From NCBI GenBank assembly GCA_028698305.1, contig JAQVDN010000006.1, positions 1-64,000 on the forward strand: 64,000 bases of DNA, read 5' to 3'. The notes under the pieces were generated by a model, which saw nothing but the letters and a program-made list of their open reading frames with translations, was not told where the DNA came from and did no database searches. The translations under genes and the position numbers were made by a program. This DNA is from Candidatus Altimarinota bacterium. Lineage in GTDB: Bacteria > Patescibacteriota > Gracilibacteria > BD1-5 > UBA6164. This document shows, in pieces, positions 213-54,722 of this stretch; the first letter of the stretch is position 1, and the number at the start of each line of letters is the position of its first letter.

Positions 213-1259
213 ATGAATAATTTTAATAACAAAAAAATAAATGAAAATAAATGATCTTTTTTCTCTAAAATAATAAGGTTTATTATTTTATTTATGATAT
301 TTTTTTCTGGATACCACTATATAAATTACAATAAATTTCTAAGCAAACCTATAATCTTAGAAGATAAATTTATAGAGATAAAATATGGTGATAATTTTTC
401 AAATCTATGAAATAAAATAAATGTTTTAGATAATGCTTATTATAAATATTATATAAAAAATAATAAACCAGATTTTGAATTACAAGCTTGAAATTATATG
501 ATTAGTTCTTGAAGTACTATTGATAATTTAATTGAGTCCCTAAATAAACCTATAAATAATGAAATTAGTATAACTATCTTAGAATGACGGAATATATATG
601 ATATAGATGAAGTTCTTAACAAAAAATGATTGATTGATGCCTGAGAATATATAAATTATGTTACTGATAGTGAAAAAATAAATGCACTAAAAGAATTTTT
701 TCCTTTTTTATGAAACATAAAAACTCTAGAATGATTTTTATATCCAGATACTTATAATGTAAGTATAAGTCCATTTAAAATAAATAATTTTGTTATAAAA
801 CAATTAGAAACCTTTGAAACAAAAGTTTATGAAAAAATACTTAAAAATCTAGATAATGAGACTATAACTGATCTTGTAAATCTTGCTTCAATAGTTGAAA
901 AAGAAGAAAAAAATAACGATGAAAAAGCGATAGTTGCTTGAATACTTAAAAAAAGATTAAATTCTTGATGGATGATATGAGCTGATGCTACAGTTTGCTA
1001 TCCATATAAATTAACAAGTAATGATTGTAAGATGTCTGTTACAAGGTATCTTTATGAAAAAAATTCTTACAATACAAGACAAATAGTTTGATTACCAAAA
1101 ACTCCTATTTGTAATCCAAGTTTTTCAACTATAAATGCAACATTAAATGATAAAGAAACTCCGTATTGGTTTTACCTACATAATATAACAACTTGAAAAA
1201 TATATTATGCAAAAACAAATGCTGAACATGAGCAAAATAAAGCAAAATATATGAGATAA
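213..1259 (+). CDS. mltG: endolytic murein transglycosylase MltG (YceG family)
   Basis: Cuts nascent glycan strands in the outer face of the membrane and so helps end peptidoglycan synthesis. The 348-residue product has an N-terminal membrane anchor (about residues 25-45), then the YceG/MltG domain: an EGRNIYDID segment near residue 125, LASIVEKEEK carrying the family's catalytic Glu near residue 230, GADATVCYPY, and the C-terminal block GLPKTPICNPS. Several of these glycines are TGA codons, so the gene is only readable with UGA = Gly. The length agrees with the family (about 340). A long hairpin terminator follows. Confidence 0.93.
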
Positions 1260-2702: not shown

Positions 2703-5700
2703 ATGACTAAACTATTAAATCGTATTTCTCTTATACTATCACTTATAATGTGATTTACTATAACTTTTTCTTTCTATGTTTTTATATGAGAATTAGATGA
2801 TTTATATTGATGAGATATATTTATATTTTTGATTTTTACATTATTTTTCTGATTATTATTTAAAAAAATATTCTTAAGTGAATCATTTATAATGGAAAAA
2901 CTTGAATATTTTGCAAATGCAATGGAAAAAAGACTTATAGAATCTAGATTTACTTATACAAAAAAAGAAAAGATAAATGATGTTGAAAAGGTAAACGAGA
3001 TTGAAAAAATACAAGAAGAAGTAAATGCTTTACCAAAAGAACAATTTTTTGAAAATATAAATCATCAAATAGAAAAAACAAAAGAATTTAAAACAAACAT
3101 AAGTTCTAAACTTGATAAAGTAGAAGAAAAAGAATCAATTATAATGAAAAATATAGCTGAATTTTTTTCTACAAATTTACTTGCAAAGATAGGTTCTATA
3201 CTAGTTTTTATCTGAGTTTTATTCTTACTTAGCCTAATTTGGTGAGCTCTACCCTCTCTATGAAAAATAATTATTGGTTTTATTATATGATTTAGTATTT
3301 ATTTTACTTGAGTTATCCTTGATAATAAATGATTAAAATGAGAATCAAGGATACTACTTTGAACTTGAATACTGATAAATTTTTTAGTTATACTTGCTTG
3401 AAAATATATATTGGATTGAAATGTAAACTCGACTAATTATTTTTCAACTTGAATTACATTTTTATTTTTGATATTAAATACAATCTTTTGAGTAGTAACT
3501 TCTCTTGTATATCAATCAAAAACTATGCTTTTATTTTCATTTATATTTGCATATATAAATCCTTTTTTGATTTGATGAAATAGTACAAGTCCATATACTC
3601 TGGTTTGATATTCAGCTATAGTTTCAGCTTGAGCACTTATTATATGAAATAAAGAAAATAGTAACACTTTAAAATTATCAGCTTTTTTCTTATGAAATCT
3701 GTTATTTTTAGTTGCTCCTTTTGAAAATGAAATCTGATGGATAGTTAAGTTTATAGCAACTAGTTTACTTAGTTTGATTATATTAATTGATCTATTTAAA
3801 AATAATTATAAAAAATTAAATCTTGTTTTTAGTTTAACATTTTTATTTTTGATTGCATCACTTATAAATTGAAATGAAGCTTCTGTAATATCTAGTAGCA
3901 TAAGTTTCATATCTTATATAATTTCTATAATGTTTTTCTTCTTTTTGTGAATAATATTATTTATAAAAAATGCTATAAAAAATATCTTATCTATAATATT
4001 TTTCCCTATAATAGTTATACTTTGACTTTTGATTAGTTGAGATTTACCATTTATAGAAATAAGTATTTTTACAGTTTTGATAGCATATATAGTTTGATTT
4101 GTATTATTATCAAATAATAACAACAATAAAAAAGAAGAATGAAAAGAAATGTGAAATTGAGTTAGATATTTATTTTTTGCATTATTATGATTTTTTATAT
4201 TTATTTCAAATAGTTATCTAAGTTATAATTATATAGACTTAAATTTTTATTCTTTTTTAACTATCATAATAGTAAGTTTCATATTTTTAATAACATCTTA
4301 CATTTTTTCAAATAAATATAATCTATCTTATCTTTACCCTATTTGAACTATATGAGCTGTAATGATGTTGTTACCAGCTGTAAATTTGGATCTAGTTTTG
4401 ATGGCAAAATCAACTATGAATTTAAATCCAGAACAATATTTAAAAGTTACAAATCAAATAAATAATTATTTACATTTGATAAAACCAATTTCTATTTGAA
4501 GTATCATATTTTTTGGATTATTAAACACAATTTGGCCATTTTTCAGCAAGAATCTTATTCGTGAAAATAAGAGTATAAAAAGTCTTATTATCTGACTTAT
4601 AGTTTGAACTCTATTCTTAGGAGGAGAATTATTTAGATATGGAATGGAATACTTCCCTGGAATAAGTTTAGGTTATGCTTTTGTTTGATTATCTATATAT
4701 TATTTTGTATTGGCTTATATATTTATAACAAATATTTGATTTGATGAGATAAAGAATAACTTAAATTATAAGAATAGTTTATATTGATATCTATTTATAT
4801 CTATTTCATTATTTTCTCTTGCTATTACTCTTATTTTCTCAAAAAGTCCTGAAGTTGTATCTCTTGTTTGGTTGTTTGAAGCTAGTATATTATTTTACTT
4901 TTTTTCAAAAACAAAAGAGACAAAGATTTATCTAGCTGCAATTATACTTTTTATAATTTGAATAGTAAAACTTATAAATTTACAATATTTTGTAAAAAAT
5001 GGTGATTTACAATTTTTGATTCCACTTTCAATCATAATAATATCATTTGTTACAAACTTAAAAAATCTAGAATTTTTAGGAACAGATGTAAAGAAAAATG
5101 TACACGATATAATTCATATAATCTGAATGCTTGTAGTTTCTAGCTTACTTGTAAAAATAATACCTCAAACAAATCATGGTTGGAGTATACTTGGAATAGC
5201 TAGTTTTGTAGGTATTTCATGAATGATATATAACTATTTTTCATCAAAGATTCTTAAAACATTTTTTGTTATAATAACTATATTTTTTACATTTAATCAT
5301 ATATGAAGTTTTGATTATATATCAAATAAAATAATTAAAGACAATGTTAAACATCTAATTATTTTACAATATATAGCTACAGCTATAATTTGAGCTATAA
5401 CTATTTATTGGAATAAAACAAATAAGATAAGTATCTTTAATAATATACTAAATGCAAACCTGATTTTTTATATACTAGTAATTGTTTCAATGTATATTTA
5501 CGATATATTCAACAATACATTTGCTATAACTATTTTCTGGTGAATCATATCTATAATACTTCTTATCAGATGAATAAGCAATGACAAGAAAAAAATAAGA
5601 ACTATATGACTTTATCTACTTACTTTAGTTCTTGCAAAGATATTTTTATATGATATTTGGTATGGACTTGATAATGCAGTAAGTAGAGTTGTAGTGTTTA

Positions 5701-6164
5701 TAATACTTTGAGTATTACTTATATTTGTTTCTACTAGATATAGTAGAAAATATGGTGATAACTTGGTTTGAGAGTTTAGTTTAAAAAACTTGAAAGATGA
5801 AAATAATGATAAAGTTGAAATAAAACAAAAAGAAGAAAAAGTGAGAGCTGATGATGATAATAGAAAACAAAAAATAACATCTCAAATTAAAAATATAGAC
5901 TTAAAATGAATAACTAGTGCTACTTTTAAGATAAATTGAAAAATAGCATTTTCTAGTAGAAGTAAGAATATACTTCAAATAGTAGTTTATGTTATAGAAA
6001 AAACTTGATTAAAAGAATTTCAAGCACAAGAACTTAAACCATTTTATGATTTTGTAACTAAAAATTATATAAGTGATTTAAATGCTCGTGATCTGGCAAC
6101 AATTCAAAATGCTTTTAAAAATTTTGTTGAAGCAGGTTGAGAAGTGTTACTAAAAAAAGAATAA
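2703..6164 (+). CDS. giant polytopic membrane protein, DUF2339 family
   Basis: A 1153-residue integral membrane protein. Two N-terminal transmembrane helices are followed by a charged coiled-coil (about residues 65-150), then LLAKIGSILVFIGVLFLLS and more than twenty further hydrophobic helices with the DUF2339 pattern (WALPSLWKIIIGFIIGFSIYF, then INPFLIGGNSTSPYTLVGYS). It closes with a soluble C-terminal region of about 130 residues. DUF2339 proteins are widespread and functionally unassigned. Dozens of in-frame TGA codons are present, mostly where helix-packing glycines are expected. It follows the calcium-repeat protein by 2 bases, so the two may act together in the envelope. Confidence 0.85.
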
Positions 6165-44847: not shown

Positions 44848-47800
44848 TTAAGAATAAACACTTATTCATTCTCAAACATAATTATCATAAACATAAAAAT
44901 AAACATCATCTACTTTTTCTTTTAATACAATTTCATTATAACTCTGTGGTAATTCATCATATAAAAAATCCTCAATTGTGATTTTTACTGATGCTCTAGT
45001 ATCCGCTTTTTTTCTCCAATCTAAAACAAGTTTTTCACTTCTTAATTTTTGAAGTAATTCATGAGCTATTTTTTTGATTTTCTTTTCTTCGTCTGGACTA
45101 ATATCTTCTTTTAAAAGTATATCAAACAAAGCTAATTCTTCATCTGTTAATCATTCCATTTTTCATCTTCTTTCTTCATCATTTAACATTTGAGCTAAAA
45201 CTACAAGTGAATTAAATGTATCATCTATATTTTTAGATCAAGAGTTATATTCTCAAAGTATAAAATTTAATTTATCAATAAATTTTTTTCTTGATTTGTT
45301 TTTTCTCACCATTTCCTCAATTTTTTCTTCAATAGCCGTTTTAAAACTTTCAAGTTGCATATTTTTTCTACTACTTACAAAATAGTTTTTTAGTGCTTCA
45401 AAATCAATCTTACTTAAATCTTTTACTTCAAATTTTTTCTCTATTTTATACTTTTCAGTTACCAAAGAATAATCAAGTAAATCTTCCATTTCTTTTTTTA
45501 TTTCATCCAAATTATAATCATCTATAGAAAGACTTCTAATTCTTTCATTTATGATATTTAATAACTGAATATATTCACTAAATTCACTTGCTTTTACATC
45601 TGGTAAAATAGCTTTGTATAATAGATTTATTTTTGAGAATCTGTTTTGAAATTCTTTTTTTGTTTTTTCACTTGTTAAAACAGTGTTTACAAAATCTTCA
45701 ATTGTTTGTATTCTATAAATTCAAGAAACTTTAAATATATCAGATAAACTCAAATTCAATCACCTCAAAAAATAAACCATTTCTGACTGTTCTTGTTTTA
45801 ATTTAATTACAAGTTCTCATTTTTCTTTTATGATATCTCAAATTTGATTTCACTCTTCTGTTGTTGCATAAATAGAAAGTGCTTTTTGAAGATTATAAAA
45901 AACTCCGATATAATCCACTATCAAACCATTTGTTTTTTCTTTATAAACTCTATTTACTCTTGCAATAGTTTGCATAAGAGTATGATTTTTTAGAGGTTTA
46001 TCCAAATACAAAGTGGTCATATCTGGCACATCAAAACCTGTAAGCCACATACTACAAACAAAAACAAGTTTTAATTTCTTTTCTCATACTTCATAACTAG
46101 TTTTTTTGAAAAGTGTTTCTAAATCATCATTTTGTATTCTTTTTCTAATTGGTGCAAAATCAATTCACAATTCTCTAAAAGTAGCTATTTCATTTTGATT
46201 ATCTCATAAGCTTATCATAACTGAAGTATCCAGTTCATCTAAAAACTCTAATCTATTTTCTAGTTCTGCTTTACGAGTATTTGTAAGTCTAGTTTTTAAT
46301 TCTTTTTCAATACTTTCTCTATATTTTTTTAGTTCTTCATTTACTTTAACATACATTTTTACAGCTGTTTTTTTATCAATAGAAACAACCATTGCTTTTC
46401 AAGTATTTCATCTTTCTAGATAATGATTAACTATATCAAAAGCAACTTTATTAAGTCTATCTTCTGAAGTTAAAATCTTGTATCAAACTTGAAACTTTTT
46501 CTCTAATTCTTCTGATTCTTCATCATTTAAATTATAACTATCTTGTATTTTATCTATTTCAGCCTGTAAGCTAGGATTAATATTTTCTACTTCTGGAACT
46601 CTATTTTCATAATAAATTGGAACTGTTGCTCAATCTTCTACAGACTGAGCAAAGTTATAAACAGAAACATATTCTCAAAATACTTCTTTTGTTTTTTCTT
46701 TTTCTTCAGCTATTAAAGGAGTTCAAGTAAAACCAATAAAACTTGCATTTGGGAGAGATATTCTCATATTCATGGCAAGTGTACTATATTGGCTTCTATG
46801 AGCTTCATCAGTGATAATTATGATATCATCTCTTTCAGATAATAATTCAGGATCTTGAAATTTATGAATAAGTGTAAAAATATATCTATGATCTGCTTTT
46901 AATAATTTTTTCAAATCAGCTACACTTTCAGCATGAGTTTCTTTTGTTTTTACTATTCAAGCATTTTTATAACCTTTTGCTATTTGTTTATCTAGTTCTG
47001 TTCTATCTGTAACAATTACAAAAGTAAAATTTCCTTTGAATTTTCTATTTATTTTTTGAGTTAAAAACATCATAGAATATGATTTTCCACTTCATTGAGT
47101 ATGCCAAAAAACTCAAAGTTTCCCTTGTAGTTGTTTTCTATTTTCTACATTTTTTAAAGCTTTATTCACTCATAAATATTGATGATTTCTTGCTACTATT
47201 TTTATAATATTTCCTTTTGATTCATCAAATAAAGTAAAGTTTTCAAATATATCTAAAAATCTCGTTTTATCACAAGTTCATTTTATAATAGTTTCTAAAC
47301 TTACTTTTGGAGTTTCGTTTTCGTCAGTTACTTTTTTCCAATCATTGAAATGTTCAAATCATGAACTTATAGATCAGATCTTACTATCTATTCCATTTGA
47401 AATAATGAGAAAAGTATTATACCAAAATATTTGTGGTATAGTATTTTTATAGTCAGCTATATTATTATAAAAAGCATCTTTTAGATTTTTTCAAGCTCAT
47501 TTTAGCTCAATAAAGATCATAGGAATACCATTTACAAACCCGATTAAATCAGGTCTTCTTATATACAATTCTCAAGTAATCCACATTTGACTCACAAGCA
47601 TAAAATCATTATTTTCTGGATTCTCTAGATCTAGAACTTTTACTTTTACTATTTCATTATTTCCATCATCATCTGTATAATTCACAGTAACTCAATCTTT
47701 TAGTAAATCATGTATTTCTTTATTTGCTCTATCCAAAGACAAAGTGCTTCTATCTTGAGTTATTATTTCAAGAGTTTTCAAAATCCCCTCACTTGGTAAG

Positions 47801-47991
47801 TCAGGATTAAGTTCTCTTAATTTTGGTTCAAGGTATTTTGTAAGAACTACTTCTCATCTATTGTTTCTTGCTAGTTTTTCTTCACCTTCTTTTGTGAAGG
47901 CATCTATAAAGCAATCTTTTGACCAAAGATGCCTAAATATTTCAATTGCAGTTTTTTCTACAAGATTGTTTTCTGTGAATTGGTTAGTCAT
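44848..47991 (-). CDS. hsdR: type I restriction enzyme, R subunit
   Basis: Motor and nuclease of a type I restriction system. 1047 residues: N-terminal nuclease domain with PDLIGFVNGIPMIFIELKGA (PD-(D/E)xK residues), SF2 translocase with Walker A HTQGSGKS (about residues 300-307), DEAH at residues 395-398, IGFTGTPL, MWLTGFDVPDMTTLYLDKPL and QTIARVNRVYK, and a helical C-terminus that binds the methylase. It belongs with hsdM and hsdS upstream, but five cargo genes lie between. The first 16 codons are duplicated at 49003-49051, where they form a dead-end reading frame. Confidence 0.96.
47944..47991. repeat. direct repeat, native copy (5' end of hsdR)
   Basis: The 48 bases that encode the first residues of HsdR (MTNQFTENNLVEK and on) recur at 49003-49051 in the same orientation with two substitutions and one inserted T. 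The two copies flank the zeta-toxin module. Confidence 0.9.
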
Positions 47992-48054: not shown

Positions 48055-48210
48055 CTAAAAACGAGCTATTTTTTTAATTTCTTCATACATAGCTTTTGTT
48101 TTTGAATTCTTTTCAAATAACTTTTTTTGTCTTTGAAAAGATCATTCTAATCATTGTAAAACTAATTTTTTAAATTGTTTTTCTTTTTTTTCTCTTTCTT
48201 TTTTAGTCAT
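48055..48210 (-). CDS. 51-aa basic protein overlapping the zeta-toxin-like gene
   Basis: Small, strongly charged helical protein: MTKKEREKKEKQFKKLVLQG and then LEGSFQRQKKLF, ending EEIKKIARF. It begins 49 bases before the stop of the zeta-like kinase gene and is read in another frame, so the two are translationally coupled. Toxin-antitoxin modules often show such overlap, although in known epsilon-zeta systems the antitoxin comes first. It has TGA codons at QG and EG. Antitoxin function is a guess. Confidence 0.6.
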
Positions 48211-48983
48211 AGTATCTCAATTATAGATTTAAATAAAAATTTTATTTTGTATCTAATAGTTAATTTTTTTCTAAATAATTCATCTAAATTATCAATTAAT
48301 CAGTTTAATATATCATTATTATAGCTAATTCCAATCTTTTTGTCAAAAGATTTTTTGTCCACTATTTTTTTATTTATATTAAAAAGTCATTTAGAATTTT
48401 TATATGCAAATAAGAAAAATATATCTGTGTATTTTTTCTTTATTTCAAAGGCATTATTTATAGAATTTAAAAATTTTTCTATAAATACATCTTTTGGTAC
48501 ATTTCTTTTTCACTCTATTTCTCTCAGCTTTGTATAATAGTATGATAATAATGGATCTTGATATATCAAAACAACTCAAAAATCCCTTTTATGTTTTATA
48601 CACATTGAAATATTTTGTTCTACAACATTTTCATTTCAAAAAGTTCCATCTACTATTACATTTAAGTCATTTTTTATACAATAACTATATATTTTATTTG
48701 CTACTTTAGTTGATAATCACTGAAACTCAGAAGCATTTTTTCAAGCATATCAATCAAATAAAATTCTATATTTATCTATATCTATGATTATAAAATTGTG
48801 ATTATTTTCTATACTTTCTATAAATTCTGTTTTTCAAGCTCCTGGTGCTCAAGCAAGAAATATGACACTCGGAGTAATATCTCAATTAGTTTTAAATTTA
48901 TCTATTCAATTTTTTTCATATTCTGAAATGATAAATTCAAATATTTGTTTTACTCCTTCTTGATTTGGTTGAAATTTTTGCAT
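48162..48983 (-). CDS. zeta-toxin-like P-loop kinase
   Basis: 273 residues. Walker A LAGAPGAGKTEF (residues 43-54, two of its glycines are TGA), then IIIDIDKYRILF with the acidic pair, and NVIVDGTFGNEN, which is the zeta toxin / UDP-sugar kinase pattern (substrate-binding DxDxxR, strand plus DGT). A helical, lysine-rich C-terminus follows. Zeta toxins phosphorylate UDP-N-acetylglucosamine sugars and block wall synthesis; other members phosphorylate other small molecules. The gene lies between duplicate copies of the hsdR start together with a 51-aa partner, so it looks like an inserted module. Confidence 0.78.
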
Positions 48984-49057: not shown

Positions 49058-50203
49058 TTATTTATTTAAATTATTTCTATATAAATCATTTTTTAAATTT
49101 TCAAAATTATTATTATATAATAAATCAAACTCTTTTTCATTTTCAATAAATATATTATGAATTTTACTATCACTGTATCATTGCTTTTTTCTAGCTCATA
49201 TAACATCAAATACATCATTATCTAAAGAATACTTATAAAGTTTATAAAAATAACTTGATTCTTTCATTTTAATTATAGATTTATTTCATAAATACCAAAC
49301 TTTAAATCAATGATGTTCAATATCTCTTATATCATACTCGAAAATTTGATTATTAACATCTTCTTCTGTCATATCAGGTAAAGAATTAATCCATACTATC
49401 ACATTTTGTGCTTCACTATCTTTATTTAATATATCTAAAATTAAACTATAAATTTCTTTTCATATAATTTTTTTTAATTTATCAATAGAAAAATGTAATT
49501 GAGGAAATCATGGAGTATCTATTCAAAACTTTTTACTAAAATCATATTCATAAACTCATAATGGATACTTAACTAAGTGCAATATTGTTAAAATATAGAT
49601 AACTGATTTAAAAAATTGGTAGTATTTGATAAAAGAAGATTCTTCAAATGTTTGACAATTACTTTTCATTTTTCACATACTATTTGTATATTTATATCAT
49701 TTTGTATGAACATAATTATGCAAATCAGATAACTTTAATATTTCTTTTTTAAAGTTAATTTTATTATTTAGTATTTTAAAGTTTTCATGTTTAGATATTT
49801 TATTCCAAATATCTTCAAATCTTGGAGTATTTTCTTTTGACCTATGCCATTCTTTAATATCTTCATGTCAATTATCATATAAATTCCAAAAAACTGATAG
49901 CATTCACAATTCTAAAACTCATCTTAAAGAAACTATTGCTTGCTTATAAAATCAAAATAACATTAAATTATATGAAACCTGTAATTCCTCAAAAGAGTCA
50001 ACAAAAGGAGCAAAATGTCATGAAAACATATTATCAAAAGTATGAGGAACAAGTCCTCATACTGCATGATATAACCAAAAATAATCGTAAAAATCTTTCT
50101 CAATTGAATTATTATTTTTAATAAATAACTCAGTTTCTTCTTTTACATCAATACTTTTTTCAGTTTTATATGTTAATGGTAGCATACTTTTTTTACTTAA
50201 CAT
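49058..50203 (-). CDS. hypothetical protein of the restriction island (381 aa)
   Basis: Not assigned. 381 residues, no membrane helix. Segments such as YKQAIVSLRGVLELGMLSVF, then LSDLHNYVHTKGYKYTNS look like the HEPN-like/abortive-infection proteins often found in restriction loci (helical, with a His close to an R/N-rich turn), but the match is by feel only. The C-terminal half has an alpha/beta character (QNVIVWINSLPDMTEEDV, IEHHGFKVWYLGNKSII) suggestive of a second domain. Its start overlaps hsdS by 11 bases, and its stop lies just before the hsdR start copy. TGA codons are frequent. Confidence 0.65.
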
Positions 50204-51353
50204 CTAAACTCTCAACATCCAACTCACCACTCACAAGTCTTGGAATAAGCAAATCTCTTGTTTCTTTTAAATTTTGATTTTGTTTTTTAATATTTCAAAT
50301 TTCTAAAAATAATTTAGAAACTATTTCTTCAAAATCATTTAATAGATTTTCAGGAATATATAAAGATAATAATCACATTATATCTTTTGGATAAACATGA
50401 GGTTGTGCAGATCATCTTTGTAATCAAGTAATTTCAACTTGTCTATTTATCAATTGTAAATACCAAAAGTAAACAAAATTTGTAACTTTTCAGTCAATAT
50501 ATGAACAATCAGATGCCCAAATATCATCATAATAAAAATTAACATATCAAGCATTAGCTCAAGAAGCACTTATTGTAATTACTGGTCACATTGTATTTGA
50601 AATATTATGATAACATGAAGGACTTAATCATCATGCTACTACTGGAATAATTCATTCCTTAACAGTAGCTTTTGTTATATTCTTTCATTTAGGAATATTT
50701 ATAATATCTCAAATCTTCTTCACTTCCCACCCTTCAGGTATCATCCTAAAATTATCATTTCAACTCTCAATCATTTTTATATTTTCACTTCACGGAAAAT
50801 TATATTTCACAAACCATTCTTCATAAATACTTTGTGCTGTTTCTTCTAAAATATTTATTCTTTTATTGTTATTTTCTATTAAATCATCATATTTTGAAAG
50901 TATTGAAGCTATTTTTTGTTGGGTTGAAAGTGGTGGGAGAAGAATTTCAATTCTTGATAAACTAGATTGAGACAATTTTGGTTGTGCTGCTCAAGTTATA
51001 TATCATCAAATATCATTTCAAGAAAACCAATACATTATAAAATCAGTATCAGCAATGTTTGATTTTCATAAAATAATATGAGAGTGATTATTAACCCAAA
51101 ATTTTCATTCAGCAAAAAAAGCAATTGGAGTATTTCTTTCAGTTAAATTTGCTCAATCTTCAGAAATTAATAAATATCTTCAATCAAAAATAAAATCATC
51201 AATGTAATCAATAATTCAAGATGCTCAATAATATGGATAATTTCCTTGTTTTTTAGTTCTTTGAATTGTACTTAATGGAATTCTTCTATTATCAAAAAAA
51301 TCAATAATATCTCATAATCTTACTTTTTTCCATCATTTTTTTATTTCTTGCAT
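50193..51353 (-). CDS. hsdS: type I restriction enzyme, specificity subunit
   Basis: 386 residues with two target-recognition domains, each followed by a helical spacer. The first spacer is [21 protein letters not shown] and [20 protein letters not shown]; the second is [20 protein letters not shown], then [18 protein letters not shown], the standard HsdS C-terminus. The two TRDs read half sites of a bipartite DNA target and guide HsdM/HsdR. Overlaps the 381-aa gene by 11 bases. Confidence 0.94.
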
Positions 51354-51358
51354 AGTTT

Positions 51359-52081
51359 TTATTTTTTATTTAAAATATATGAATTACAAAAATTAACAGC
51401 ATCTTTATTAAGTTTTTCTAATTTATCATGATTAGATTTTTGTAAATAAGAGTATTCATCTCAAATTAACTTTACTCAAATCACTTCTAAAGAAGGAATT
51501 ATAACTTTATCTCAACAAAAATTTAAAAAGTAATATTCTTGATTATAAAAATATAATTCTCATATTATATTAGTTCAATCTTTCAATTTTATATCAACAT
51601 ATTTTGAGGCAAATACATTAAATCAAAAAACTGAAAATATAAGTATAAAAACTAAACTAATTATTTTTAAAGTAAATTTATCAAATTCAGATTTATTTAA
51701 TTTATTTCTAAAATTTTCATATTTTTTTGGAAAAAATTTTCTTAAAATCGGTTTTCAAAAAAATAAAATAAAAAAGTAAATAAATATAAATATTTTTCAA
51801 ATAATTCATAGTCACCAAAAATGGACTATACCATATAAAAATAATCAAAAAATAAAGAAAAATAATGATGGAACAGACAAAATAAATAAAAATAAAAATA
51901 TAATAAACAAAATTATTGAAAATTTTAAACTTACATAGAAAAATCATTGAAAACCAGAATAGCTCATCAACATAATAAGTTGAAAAGCTACTCATAATCA
52001 ATAAACAGAAGATGTAATGAGAATTTTATTTTTTTCTATAAATTCTCAGAATTCTTTGATTTTATCTATATATTGTTTCAT
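51359..52081 (-). CDS. membrane protein inside the hsd locus (240 aa)
   Basis: Not recognised. About five hydrophobic helices (ILITSSVYGLGVAFQLIMLM, FSIILFIIFLFLFILSVPSLF, FTLKIISLVFILIFSVFGFN) and then a short extracytoplasmic beta-like tail (VDIKLKDGTNIIGELYFY) with a final Cys-containing helix. It lies 5 bases upstream of hsdS, cotranscribed with it. A fragment of the hsdM 3' end lies just before its start. A membrane protein in a type I restriction operon is unusual; it might be the effector of another defence module. Confidence 0.7.
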
Positions 52082-52128: not shown

Positions 52129-52157
52129 TTGTCTTTTTTAATAAAATTTTATATAAT
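52129..52157 (+). promoter_or_regulatory. promoter of small RNA gene 1
   Basis: TTGTCT (52129-52134), 17-bp spacer, perfect TATAAT (52152-52157) on the plus strand, opposite to all surrounding genes. Confidence 0.7.
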
Positions 52158-52163
52158 CTAATT

Positions 52164-52235
52164 ACTTAGATGTAGCTTTCTTAATCTTTTAAGAAAGTAG
52201 ACCCCCTTGACTTCGGTTTTAAGGGGATTTTTTTT
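52164..52235 (+). ncRNA. small RNA gene 1 in the hsd island (candidate)
   Basis: About 72 nt from the predicted start to the end of a T8 tract. It forms two hairpins: CTTTCTTA/TAAGAAAG (52176-52183 with 52190-52197, six-base loop), and a strong terminator CCCCTTGAC-TTCG-GTTTTAAGGGG (52203-52226) with a UUCG tetraloop. There is no reading frame. GC content is clearly above the surroundings. No plus-strand gene follows, so this is not a riboswitch. It lies between two copies of the hsdM tail. Function unknown. Confidence 0.68.
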
Positions 52236-52247
52236 ATATTAAAATAT

Positions 52248-52266
52248 TTTACTCATATTATCAAAA
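52248..52266. repeat. direct repeat, hsdM 3'-end copy C
   Basis: Matches 53214-53232 in 18 of 19 bases; on the minus strand it reads FDNMSKIF and TAA, against FENMSKLV and TAG in HsdM. Confidence 0.7.
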
Positions 52267-52313
52267 AAAATTTAAAATTTTTTTATCACTATATTAATAA
52301 AACTAAAAATCTT

Positions 52314-52342
52314 TTGACTTTTTGATCAAAAACTTATATAAT
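52314..52342 (+). promoter_or_regulatory. promoter of small RNA gene 2
   Basis: TTGACT (52314-52319), 17-bp spacer, perfect TATAAT (52337-52342) on the plus strand. Confidence 0.75.
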
Positions 52343-52348
52343 GTATTT

Positions 52349-52417
52349 AATACAGCTGGTCGTAGGTTTCCGTCAGGGAGCTTCATCTTCTTTGAAGATA
52401 TACCAGTTGTTTTTTTA
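52349..52417 (+). ncRNA. small RNA gene 2 in the hsd island (candidate)
   Basis: About 68 nt. The outer stem CAGCTGGT/ACCAGTTG (52353-52360 with 52402-52409) closes a branched structure and, with the T run that follows, also acts as the terminator. Inside are a TTCC-GTCA-GGGA hairpin and ATCTTC-TTT-GAAGAT (52385-52399), so the RNA would be a three-way junction. It shares a GTAG-x-TTTC stretch with small RNA 1. Its 3' end is 5 bases from the stop of the convergent DUF3800 gene. No coding potential. Function unknown. Confidence 0.7.
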
Positions 52418-52421
52418 TTGC

Positions 52422-53186
52422 TTAAAATCTTGTTACTCTACTTGAACTTTTAGGCTCAACATCAATATACTGCTTTTTTGCAATTATTTTTTCATAATGT
52501 TTAAATAATTCTTTTCTCATAAATCAAGATTTTTCAATATTTCATAAATAACTTGCTGTTTTATAAGCTCAATAAATATATCAAATCACATCTGATAACT
52601 GCATAAGATAAGAATTGTAACTATCTGTATAATAAACAGTATCTATTAAACAATTTATAGATTTTTTTCTTAATCAAAATGAAGTTCAATTCTTTTTATA
52701 ATCTTGAAAATTATTTATAATATTTTGTTCAGTTTCTAAATTTTTATCCATTATTATTAATCATTTTTTATCATTATCCTCTAAAAATCTATCTATTTTT
52801 TCAATTAAATACATAAAAGATAAATAATGTGGATGATATGGATTATCATATTTTGATTTTAAATATTGTTTATTTATTCATTGAGAAAAAAATTTAATAT
52901 CATATTTTTCAAAAATATTTATAAGTCATTCAAAGGCTTTTAATCTTTCATCAATTTTAAAGTTTTTAAAATATTTTTTTCATCAAGCCATATCAATAGC
53001 ATGAAATTCAAAGTCAAAGTTTTGAGAAAATGGTAAAAAATTTATTTCTAAATTTTTCATATCTTTTTCAATATTTTGAATATCATTAAAATTAACTCAA
53101 ATTCAATTTATAAAATGAATTGGTTGTTCTTTATTTTCTAAATCATTTCAAGTATTTCATGATTCATCAAGATAAAATAACATCAT
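52422..53186 (-). CDS. DUF3800 family protein
   Basis: 254 residues. N-terminal LFYLDESGNTGND is the DUF3800 hallmark, with further acidic positions in FEFHAIDM, GLIIMDKNLETEQN and YLMQLSDVIGYIYGAYK, arranged like an RNase H-fold nuclease core (DE..D..D). These proteins are common near restriction systems and other defence genes, but their activity is mostly unknown. It lies 18 bases after hsdM. Two ATGs are adjacent; the first was taken. The preserved acidic residues suggest an active enzyme. Confidence 0.82.
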
Positions 53187-53204: not shown

Positions 53205-54722
53205 CTAAACTAATTTACTCATATTTTCAAAAATGCTTTTTTCTAATTCATGAGCCTCTTTTGTTAGAACTTTAAAGTCTTCATTTAATCTACTTATTTT
53301 TACACTAAAATCTTCATCATTTACTTTTTCTTTTTCAGTTACTCAAACATATCTTCATGGATTTAAACTATATCATTGTTCTTTTATTTCTTCTAAACTA
53401 GCAACTTTACAATAACCTTTAACATCTTTATATTCTTCAGCTCAATCTTCTCATCTATAAGCTCTTACAGTATTTGCTATTTTTTCTATATGCACTGGTA
53501 AAAACTCTCTATGAGCTCTATCTATTTGATTATATAAATCTTTTGCATCTATAAAAAGTACTTTATTTTTTCTTGGAGTATTTGCTTTTGCTTTATCCAT
53601 AAACCATAAAGTACAAGGCAAAGTTACATTGTAAAACATATTTGGTCATACGGAAACCATTACATCTATAGCATTGTCTTCTATAAGTTTTTTTCTAATC
53701 TCATTTTCAGTATTTCATGCATCACTTGCACTATTTGCCATAACAAATCAAGCTCTTCATGTATTATTTAAAGCACTATAAAAAGCCTGTACCCATAGAT
53801 AATTTGCATTATCATTATTTGGAATTCAGAAATTGTATCTTGGATCATCTTTGATTTTTTCTTTATCTATTTGTTTTAGATTAAAAGGAGGATTTGCCAT
53901 AACAAAATCAAACTGACCTATACTTTTATGCATATCTTCATACATCGTATTTCAGTTTTTTATATCTCCACTTAAACCATTTATAGCTAAGTTTAGTTTT
54001 GCTATTTTTACTGTTTCTGGTGTTTTTTCTTGACCATAAACTGATATTTCTTTTGTTGCTTCAGATAAGTTTTTTTTGTGTTCTTTAATAAAGTTTAATG
54101 ATTGTACAAACATACCTCAAGAACCACAAGCTGGATCATATATTTTACCATGATATGGTTCTATAATCTCTACTATTAGCTTTACTATTGAAGTTGGAGT
54201 AAAAAATTCTCATCATTTTTGACCTTCTCAAAGTGCAAATTTACCTAAGAAGTATTCATAAATACCTCAAAAAGCATCTCATTCTATATTATCTGGTATA
54301 GAATTGAAATTCTTTAGTAAATCTATAAGAGTTGATTTTTCTTTAAATAGATTATATGATTTTGGAAGAATTCATTTCAAATCTGGATTATTTTCTTCTA
54401 CTTCTTTCATGGCTTCATTTATAGCTTTACCTAGATTTTCACTTTCTGGTAAATGTAGTAAATAATTGAAGTTAGAATGAGCTCATAAATAAATCACTCA
54501 TTTTGCATGATAGTGATCTGACCTTAATTCTCTTTGTCTTCAGTTTGAATTACTATATTCTTTTTCTAGTTCAGCTTTTGCTTTATCAAATCTAACTTGA
54601 GCGAATTTCAAAAATATCAAGCCCAAAATTGGTTCTGATAAATTACTTAGTTTTAATCATTCATTTCACCACACTTTACAAGCTGAATCCCAAAGTGTTT
54701 TTTCTAGTTTTATTATGTCCAT
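53205..54722 (-). CDS. hsdM: type I restriction enzyme, M subunit (adenine methylase)
   Basis: 505 residues. N-terminal helical domain ([22 protein letters not shown], an HsdM_N pattern), SAM-binding motif I DPACGSGGMF preceded by [17 protein letters not shown], catalytic NPPF in [13 protein letters not shown], and [10 protein letters not shown]. The C-terminus GYSLNPGRYVG then leads to FENMSKLV. It methylates adenine in the target chosen by HsdS. It is the first gene of the island. Its last codons recur twice downstream (52098-52119 and 52248-52266). Confidence 0.96.
53206..53232. repeat. hsdM 3' end, native copy of the tail repeat
   Basis: Source copy for the two tail fragments at 52098-52119 (22 of 22 bases) and 52248-52266 (18 of 19 bases). 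Confidence 0.85.

What the first reader, a model, noticed from the sequence alone, without database searches (positions are those of the whole stretch)
52129..52417. Two tandem small RNA genes opposite to the restriction operon
Seen: two units, each with a near-consensus promoter (17-bp spacer and perfect TATAAT) followed about 70 bases later by a strong intrinsic terminator, both on the plus strand against all neighbouring genes. RNA 1 has a UUCG-capped terminator and one extra hairpin; RNA 2 is a three-way junction closed by its terminator stem. Both share GTAG-x-TTTC. No gene follows them on that strand. They lie between DUF3800 and a membrane protein. Inference: they could be antitoxin, guide or regulatory RNAs of the DUF3800 or membrane module.
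Basis: partly seen in the sequence, partly recalled or inferred. Interest (0 to 1): 0.82.

Follow-up and report, generated by a model that had tools for sequence, protein, structure and literature searches.

The report
Two toxin-partner small RNA genes
Two small structured RNA genes lie opposite a bacterial restriction operon; one is the RNA that accompanies the neighbouring DUF3800 nuclease-like gene, and the other belongs to a family absent from Rfam that elsewhere sits tail-to-tail with a PemK-like toxin gene lacking a protein antitoxin, so both probably act as RNA antitoxins.

Summary
In detail: two promoter-hairpin-terminator units lie on the plus strand at 52129-52417. The organism reads TGA as glycine (code 25). 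RNA2 (52350-52416) recurs 97% identical in another family, at the same place (convergent, just 3' of DUF3800, inside hsdM-DUF3800-hsdS), although the DUF3800 genes there are only 68% identical. Of 29 DUF3800 genes of the class, at least 20 carry a convergent structured RNA abutting the stop codon; ten match Rfam DUF3800-V or -IX. RNA2 shares the DUF3800-IX topology but no Rfam model finds it. RNA1 (52164-52235) belongs to a family absent from Rfam: 11 members, fixed TATAAT-N7-CTTAGATGTAG spacing, compensatory changes in 10 of 13 pairs. Seven of 11 abut the stop codon of a long PemK-like toxin gene that lacks the antitoxin ORF preceding ordinary PemK/MazF genes; the sister PemK clade carries a different RNA. 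In the window RNA1 is an orphan: no such PemK is in the assembly. Best reading: RNA antitoxins (type III-like, tail-to-tail) of nuclease toxins lodged in restriction operons. The pairing with DUF3800 and PemK is shown; neutralisation is inferred. The shared GTAG-x-TTTC is not conserved; a membrane-protein link is unsupported.

The parts
52129..52157 (+). promoter of RNA1 (TTGTCT - 17 - TATAAT)
   Evidence: all 11 family members have a TATAAT-like box exactly 7 nt before CTTAGATGTAG
52164..52235 (+). RNA1: conserved 5' ACUUAGAUGUAG, variable hairpin (about 52175-52198), terminator hairpin 52203-52226 with UUCG loop, T-tract
   Evidence: no Rfam match
52314..52342 (+). promoter of RNA2 (TTGACT - 17 - TATAAT)
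52350..52416 (+). RNA2: three-way junction whose outer stem plus T-tract is the terminator; T-tract begins about 12 nt from the DUF3800 stop codon
52422..53186 (-). DUF3800 protein (254 aa under code 25), partner gene of RNA2; conserved D7, E8, S9, G10, Q196, D199 are present
53205..54722 (-). HsdM, type I restriction-modification methyltransferase
51359..52081 (-). membrane protein, no family; probably not the partner
50193..51353 (-). HsdS, specificity subunit
48162..48983 (-). zeta-toxin-like kinase in the same operon
44848..47991 (-). HsdR, type I restriction endonuclease

Best explanation
The two units are separate small RNA genes. RNA2 is the dedicated RNA partner of the neighbouring DUF3800 gene. 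RNA1 belongs to a second RNA family, absent from Rfam, whose usual partner is a long PemK-like toxin. Each partner pair is encoded tail-to-tail: the RNA has its own promoter, and its terminator ends at the stop codon of the protein gene. Most likely the RNA folds, binds its cognate nuclease and keeps it inactive, as RNA antitoxins of type III systems do. The pairs sit inside restriction operons, where they would punish loss of the operon or shutdown of host transcription. In this genome RNA1 has lost (or never had) its PemK and is an orphan antitoxin. Shown by sequence comparison: RNA genes, conserved structure, conserved placement, partner specificity. Inferred: transcription, binding, inhibition, and the guard role.
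For: RNA2: homologue in another family with the same convergent position 3' of DUF3800 in hsdM-DUF3800-hsdS; RNA 97% identical against 67.7% for the gene and 57% for the upstream DNA. Convergent terminator at the stop codon in 15 of 29 DUF3800 genes against 7 of 99 flanking genes, two of these 7 being themselves such RNAs; Rfam adds five loci, at least 20 of 29. RNA1: 104 of 104 cells paired, 10 of 13 pairs with changes on both sides; found next to PemK_toxin genes (PF02452). RNA1-linked PemKs (182-234 aa) lack the small ORF that overlaps or abuts the start of most ordinary 109-131 aa PemKs, including this genome's own MazF. The PemK clade split (support 100/99) matches the RNA class split, RNA1 against RNA3. 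Precedent: AbiF is neutralised by direct binding of an adjacent ncRNA (PMC12373285).
Against: No expression, binding or toxicity data. Toxicity of DUF3800 is unproven. Known type III antitoxins lie upstream in the toxin operon and are repeated; these are single and convergent. Four of 11 RNA1 copies do not abut a PemK stop codon (window, G016, G022, G330). The co-variation alignment was fitted to the model's structure. The clade-to-RNA match rests on nine proteins.
Confidence: 0.55

Rival explanations
1. The RNAs are activating cofactors or scaffolds: DUF3800 (predicted RNase H-like) works as a ribonucleoprotein that needs RNA2, and the complex is a defence effector.
For: DUF3800 was modelled as an RNase H fold and occurs with Cas12a2 (PMC10910872); conserved acidic residues intact; very strong constraint on RNA2.
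Against: No variable guide segment; PemK-fold toxins with a tail-to-tail RNA are better explained by inhibition; RNA classes swap with toxin clades.
Confidence: 0.2
2. The RNAs are antisense or interference regulators: convergent transcription and base pairing with the read-through operon mRNA dampen expression of the gene they face.
For: Convergent, abutting the stop codon; in the window and G058 the operon must be transcribed through the RNA gene to reach hsdS.
Against: Conserved folds with compensatory changes and a fixed 5' single-stranded motif point to a folded RNA recognised by protein; pure antisense needs no such fold. RNA-mRNA duplexes were not computed.
Confidence: 0.12
3. RNA1 here is an anti-addiction element or a decaying remnant of a lost PemK-RNA1 module, with no role for DUF3800.
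For: No PemK of this clade in the assembly (the one PemK/MazF found has its own protein antitoxin); other orphans lie at hsdM (G016, G022); orphan RNA3 in G023.
Against: Promoter and fold are intact; the assembly is 88% complete. This overlaps with the best explanation and is separate only in denying any present function of RNA1.
Confidence: 0.1

Closest known systems
DUF3800-IX RNA (Rfam RF02968) and DUF3800-V RNA (RF02964)
   Same: Convergent small RNA abutting the 3' end of a DUF3800 gene; DUF3800-IX has the same three-way-junction topology with the outer stem as terminator.
   Different: RNA2 is not detected by either model; it lacks the conserved GAACUGU and differs in the first hairpin.
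Type III toxin-antitoxin systems (ToxIN, CptIN, TenpIN, AbiF-RCd22)
   Same: RNA partner of a toxin; ToxN-type toxins share the MazF/PemK fold (own knowledge); no protein antitoxin.
   Different: Here the RNA gene is single, convergent and 3' of the toxin, with its own promoter; no tandem repeats.
Rfam pemK RNA (RF02913)
   Same: Associated by name with pemK genes.
   Different: No match of any RNA1 relative scanned, up to E = 2.
CrePA (KilA-N toxin with crRNA-like antitoxin)
   Same: KilA-N toxin held by a small RNA (PMC12737573); one RNA1 copy abuts a KilA-N gene of PADLOC class PDC-S22.
   Different: No Cas genes seen beside RNA1; its structure is not crRNA-like.

Membership tests
DUF3800-associated RNAs (as a kind) | structured small RNA beside a DUF3800 gene | tested here: met
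   RNA2 in the window and in G058, same orientation and place
DUF3800-IX (RF02968) | match to the Rfam covariance model | tested here: not met
   no match at E up to 10
DUF3800-IX (RF02968) | three-way junction closed by a terminator stem | tested here: met
   cross-hit of the RNA2 model to the DUF3800-IX-like RNA of L067 at E 0.013
Type III toxin-antitoxin | toxin of the ToxN/PemK-like or HEPN kind without protein antitoxin | tested here: met
   for the PemK partners of RNA1 elsewhere; the window has no such PemK
Type III toxin-antitoxin | tandem-repeat RNA upstream of and co-transcribed with the toxin | tested here: not met
   single convergent RNA downstream
Type III toxin-antitoxin | RNA binds and inhibits the toxin | not testable with these tools
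   needs experiment
Rfam pemK RNA (RF02913) | match to the Rfam covariance model | tested here: not met

The most novel reading that the evidence does not exclude
A new group of RNA-antitoxin modules with tail-to-tail layout: PemK-like and DUF3800 nucleases, each held by its own small folded RNA and stacked as tandem RNA genes opposite restriction operons in code-25 bacteria. This would extend type III-like control to two further protein families and explain the DUF3800 RNAs.
Probability: 0.45. Interest if true: 0.78.

Novelty: new variant of a known kind. Interest (0 to 1): 0.62.

Why it matters
The DUF3800 RNAs have, as far as I could find, remained without a function. A second RNA family in the same position, beside PemK-like toxins that lack a protein antitoxin, gives them a concrete and cheap hypothesis to test: RNA antitoxins encoded tail-to-tail with their toxin. 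It would also show how restriction operons of a recoded candidate-phyla lineage collect guard modules.

Tried and rejected
Rfam scan of the window and of both RNAs at permissive thresholds: only chance hits. First whole-intergenic BLAST in relatives: mostly AT-rich noise besides the two real hits. Pattern scans of viral contigs for RNA1, RNA2 and RNA3: none, or chance matches in unrelated sequence. RNA1 pattern over the phylum: own genome only. RNA2 model in 288 class genomes: own genome only. DUF3800 relatives in genome contigs gave only the G058 record and none in viral contigs. KilA-N genes in general do not carry convergent RNAs (3 of 21, two with a convergent ORF), so the G330 case is isolated. 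AlphaFold of DUF3800 from two sequences is useless (mean pLDDT 36), and PDB sequence search found nothing convincing. Shared GTAG-x-TTTC: rejected as coincidence. Membrane-protein partner: not supported. The original paper on the DUF3800 RNAs is not held.

Full report
Setting. The window comes from a genome that reads TGA as glycine (NCBI code 25, SR1/Gracilibacteria): long frames for HsdM, HsdS, HsdR and others are open only under that code. On the minus strand lie HsdM (53205-54722), a DUF3800 protein (52422-53186, PF12686), a membrane protein (51359-52081), HsdS (50193-51353), an unassigned protein, a zeta-toxin-like kinase (48162-48983) and HsdR (44848-47991). The two RNA units lie on the plus strand in the 340-base gap between DUF3800 and the membrane protein.

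Observation. Both promoters (17-base spacer, perfect TATAAT) and both terminators are present, and both RNAs fold better than shuffles (z -3.25 and -4.58). No Rfam family matches. The shared GTAG-x-TTTC is not kept in relatives.

RNA2. Whole-genome search in relatives found one close copy, in another family of the order (G058). There the RNA again lies convergent to, and just 3' of, a DUF3800 gene between hsdM and hsdS. RNA2 is 97% identical, while the DUF3800 gene is 67.7% identical in DNA and 74% in protein and the 100 bases upstream 57%. I then took DUF3800 genes from 279 genomes of the class and looked at their 3' ends. Most carry a convergent structured RNA, often with a TATAAT-like box, whose T-tract starts within a few bases of the DUF3800 stop codon. 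By a fixed rule, 15 of 29 (the window's own gene included) have it against 7 of 99 flanking genes; two of those seven are themselves such RNAs, one of them beside a DUF3800 gene (L110). Rfam identifies ten of these loci as DUF3800-IX or DUF3800-V, five of which the rule had missed, so at least 20 of 29. RNA2 has the DUF3800-IX topology, and the RNA2 model gives a weak cross-hit (E 0.013) to the DUF3800-IX-like RNA of G020. It is therefore a further DUF3800 RNA that the present models miss.

RNA1. The same search gave a copy in G027. A model from two sequences found two more, neighbour inspection gave others, and a refined model over 353 class genomes found ten strong matches. With G005, found by position, there are 11 copies. 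The RNA begins ACUUAGAUGUAG, exactly 7 bases after a TATAAT-like box in all 11, followed by a hairpin of variable sequence and length and a terminator hairpin with a conserved two-base bulge. In eight copies, 104 of 104 cells pair and 10 of 13 pairs change on both sides; slid controls fall to 23-60%. The alignment was fitted to the model, but the changes are visible by eye, for example CUCC/GGAG, UGAC/GUCA and CCCC/GGGG.

Partners of RNA1. Seven of 11 (G027, G402, G415 twice, G012, G023, G005) abut the stop codon of a PemK-like gene (PF02452 for two). In G022 a PemK start lies about 40 bases from RNA1, whose terminator abuts hsdM. In G330 RNA1 abuts a KilA-N gene of PADLOC class PDC-S22; in G016 it abuts hsdM, with a gene resembling dinD on the other side (named from sequence by eye). 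In the window it lies upstream of RNA2. The RNA1-linked PemKs are long (182-234 aa) and lack the small upstream ORF seen at most ordinary PemKs of the class, including the one MazF of this genome. The sister PemK clade (G020, G022) carries at its 3' end another RNA, here called RNA3 (GGUCUUCAU...AUGAAUCGACGCGA), and the protein tree separates the RNA1-linked from the RNA3-linked clade with full support; G005 is intermediate in both protein and RNA. Such matching suggests direct recognition of the RNA by the protein.

Mechanism. PemK-fold proteins are RNases; DUF3800 has been modelled as an RNase H fold and was already linked to ncRNAs (PMC10910872). AbiF with RCd22 shows that an adjacent ncRNA can neutralise a nuclease toxin by binding it (PMC12373285). 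I infer that RNA1 and RNA2 are RNA antitoxins encoded tail-to-tail with their toxins. Several of these modules sit in restriction loci: window, G058, G005, G022 and G415 (type I), G402 (type III-like). A guard role against operon loss or phage shutdown is plausible. In the window RNA1 is an orphan, as in G016, and as RNA3 is in G023.

Limits. There are no expression data. DUF3800 toxicity is not demonstrated. The AlphaFold model was uninformative. The original description of the DUF3800 RNAs could not be read, so its account of gene order could not be compared. RNA-mRNA duplexes were not computed.

Noticed in passing
L109:2024-2092 (+), L118 about 5660-5745 (+), L108 about 670-745 (-): A third small RNA family (RNA3: GGUCUUCAU-hairpin-AUGAAUCGACGCGA-terminator), convergent to PemK genes of a sister clade; an orphan copy in G023 upstream of PemK.
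   Followed up: partly
L118:4970-6661: G023 stacks three convergent RNAs (RNA1, RNA3, a DUF3800-IX-like RNA) opposite PemK and DUF3800, a close parallel to the window's tandem pair.
   Followed up: partly
L041:4356-5249: RNA1 copy abutting a KilA-N gene (PADLOC PDC-S22); other KilA-N genes of the class mostly lack such an RNA.
   Followed up: partly
window 48162-48983: Zeta-toxin-like kinase inside the type I restriction operon.
   Followed up: no
L051:1314-1376 and 2152-2220: DUF3800 gene flanked by two DUF3800-IX RNAs, one on each side.
   Followed up: no
L082, L083, L085 (3' of PemK-like genes): More distant PemK-like genes also seem to carry convergent hairpin-terminator units with a different shared motif (ACUAUCA...GGA).
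   Followed up: no
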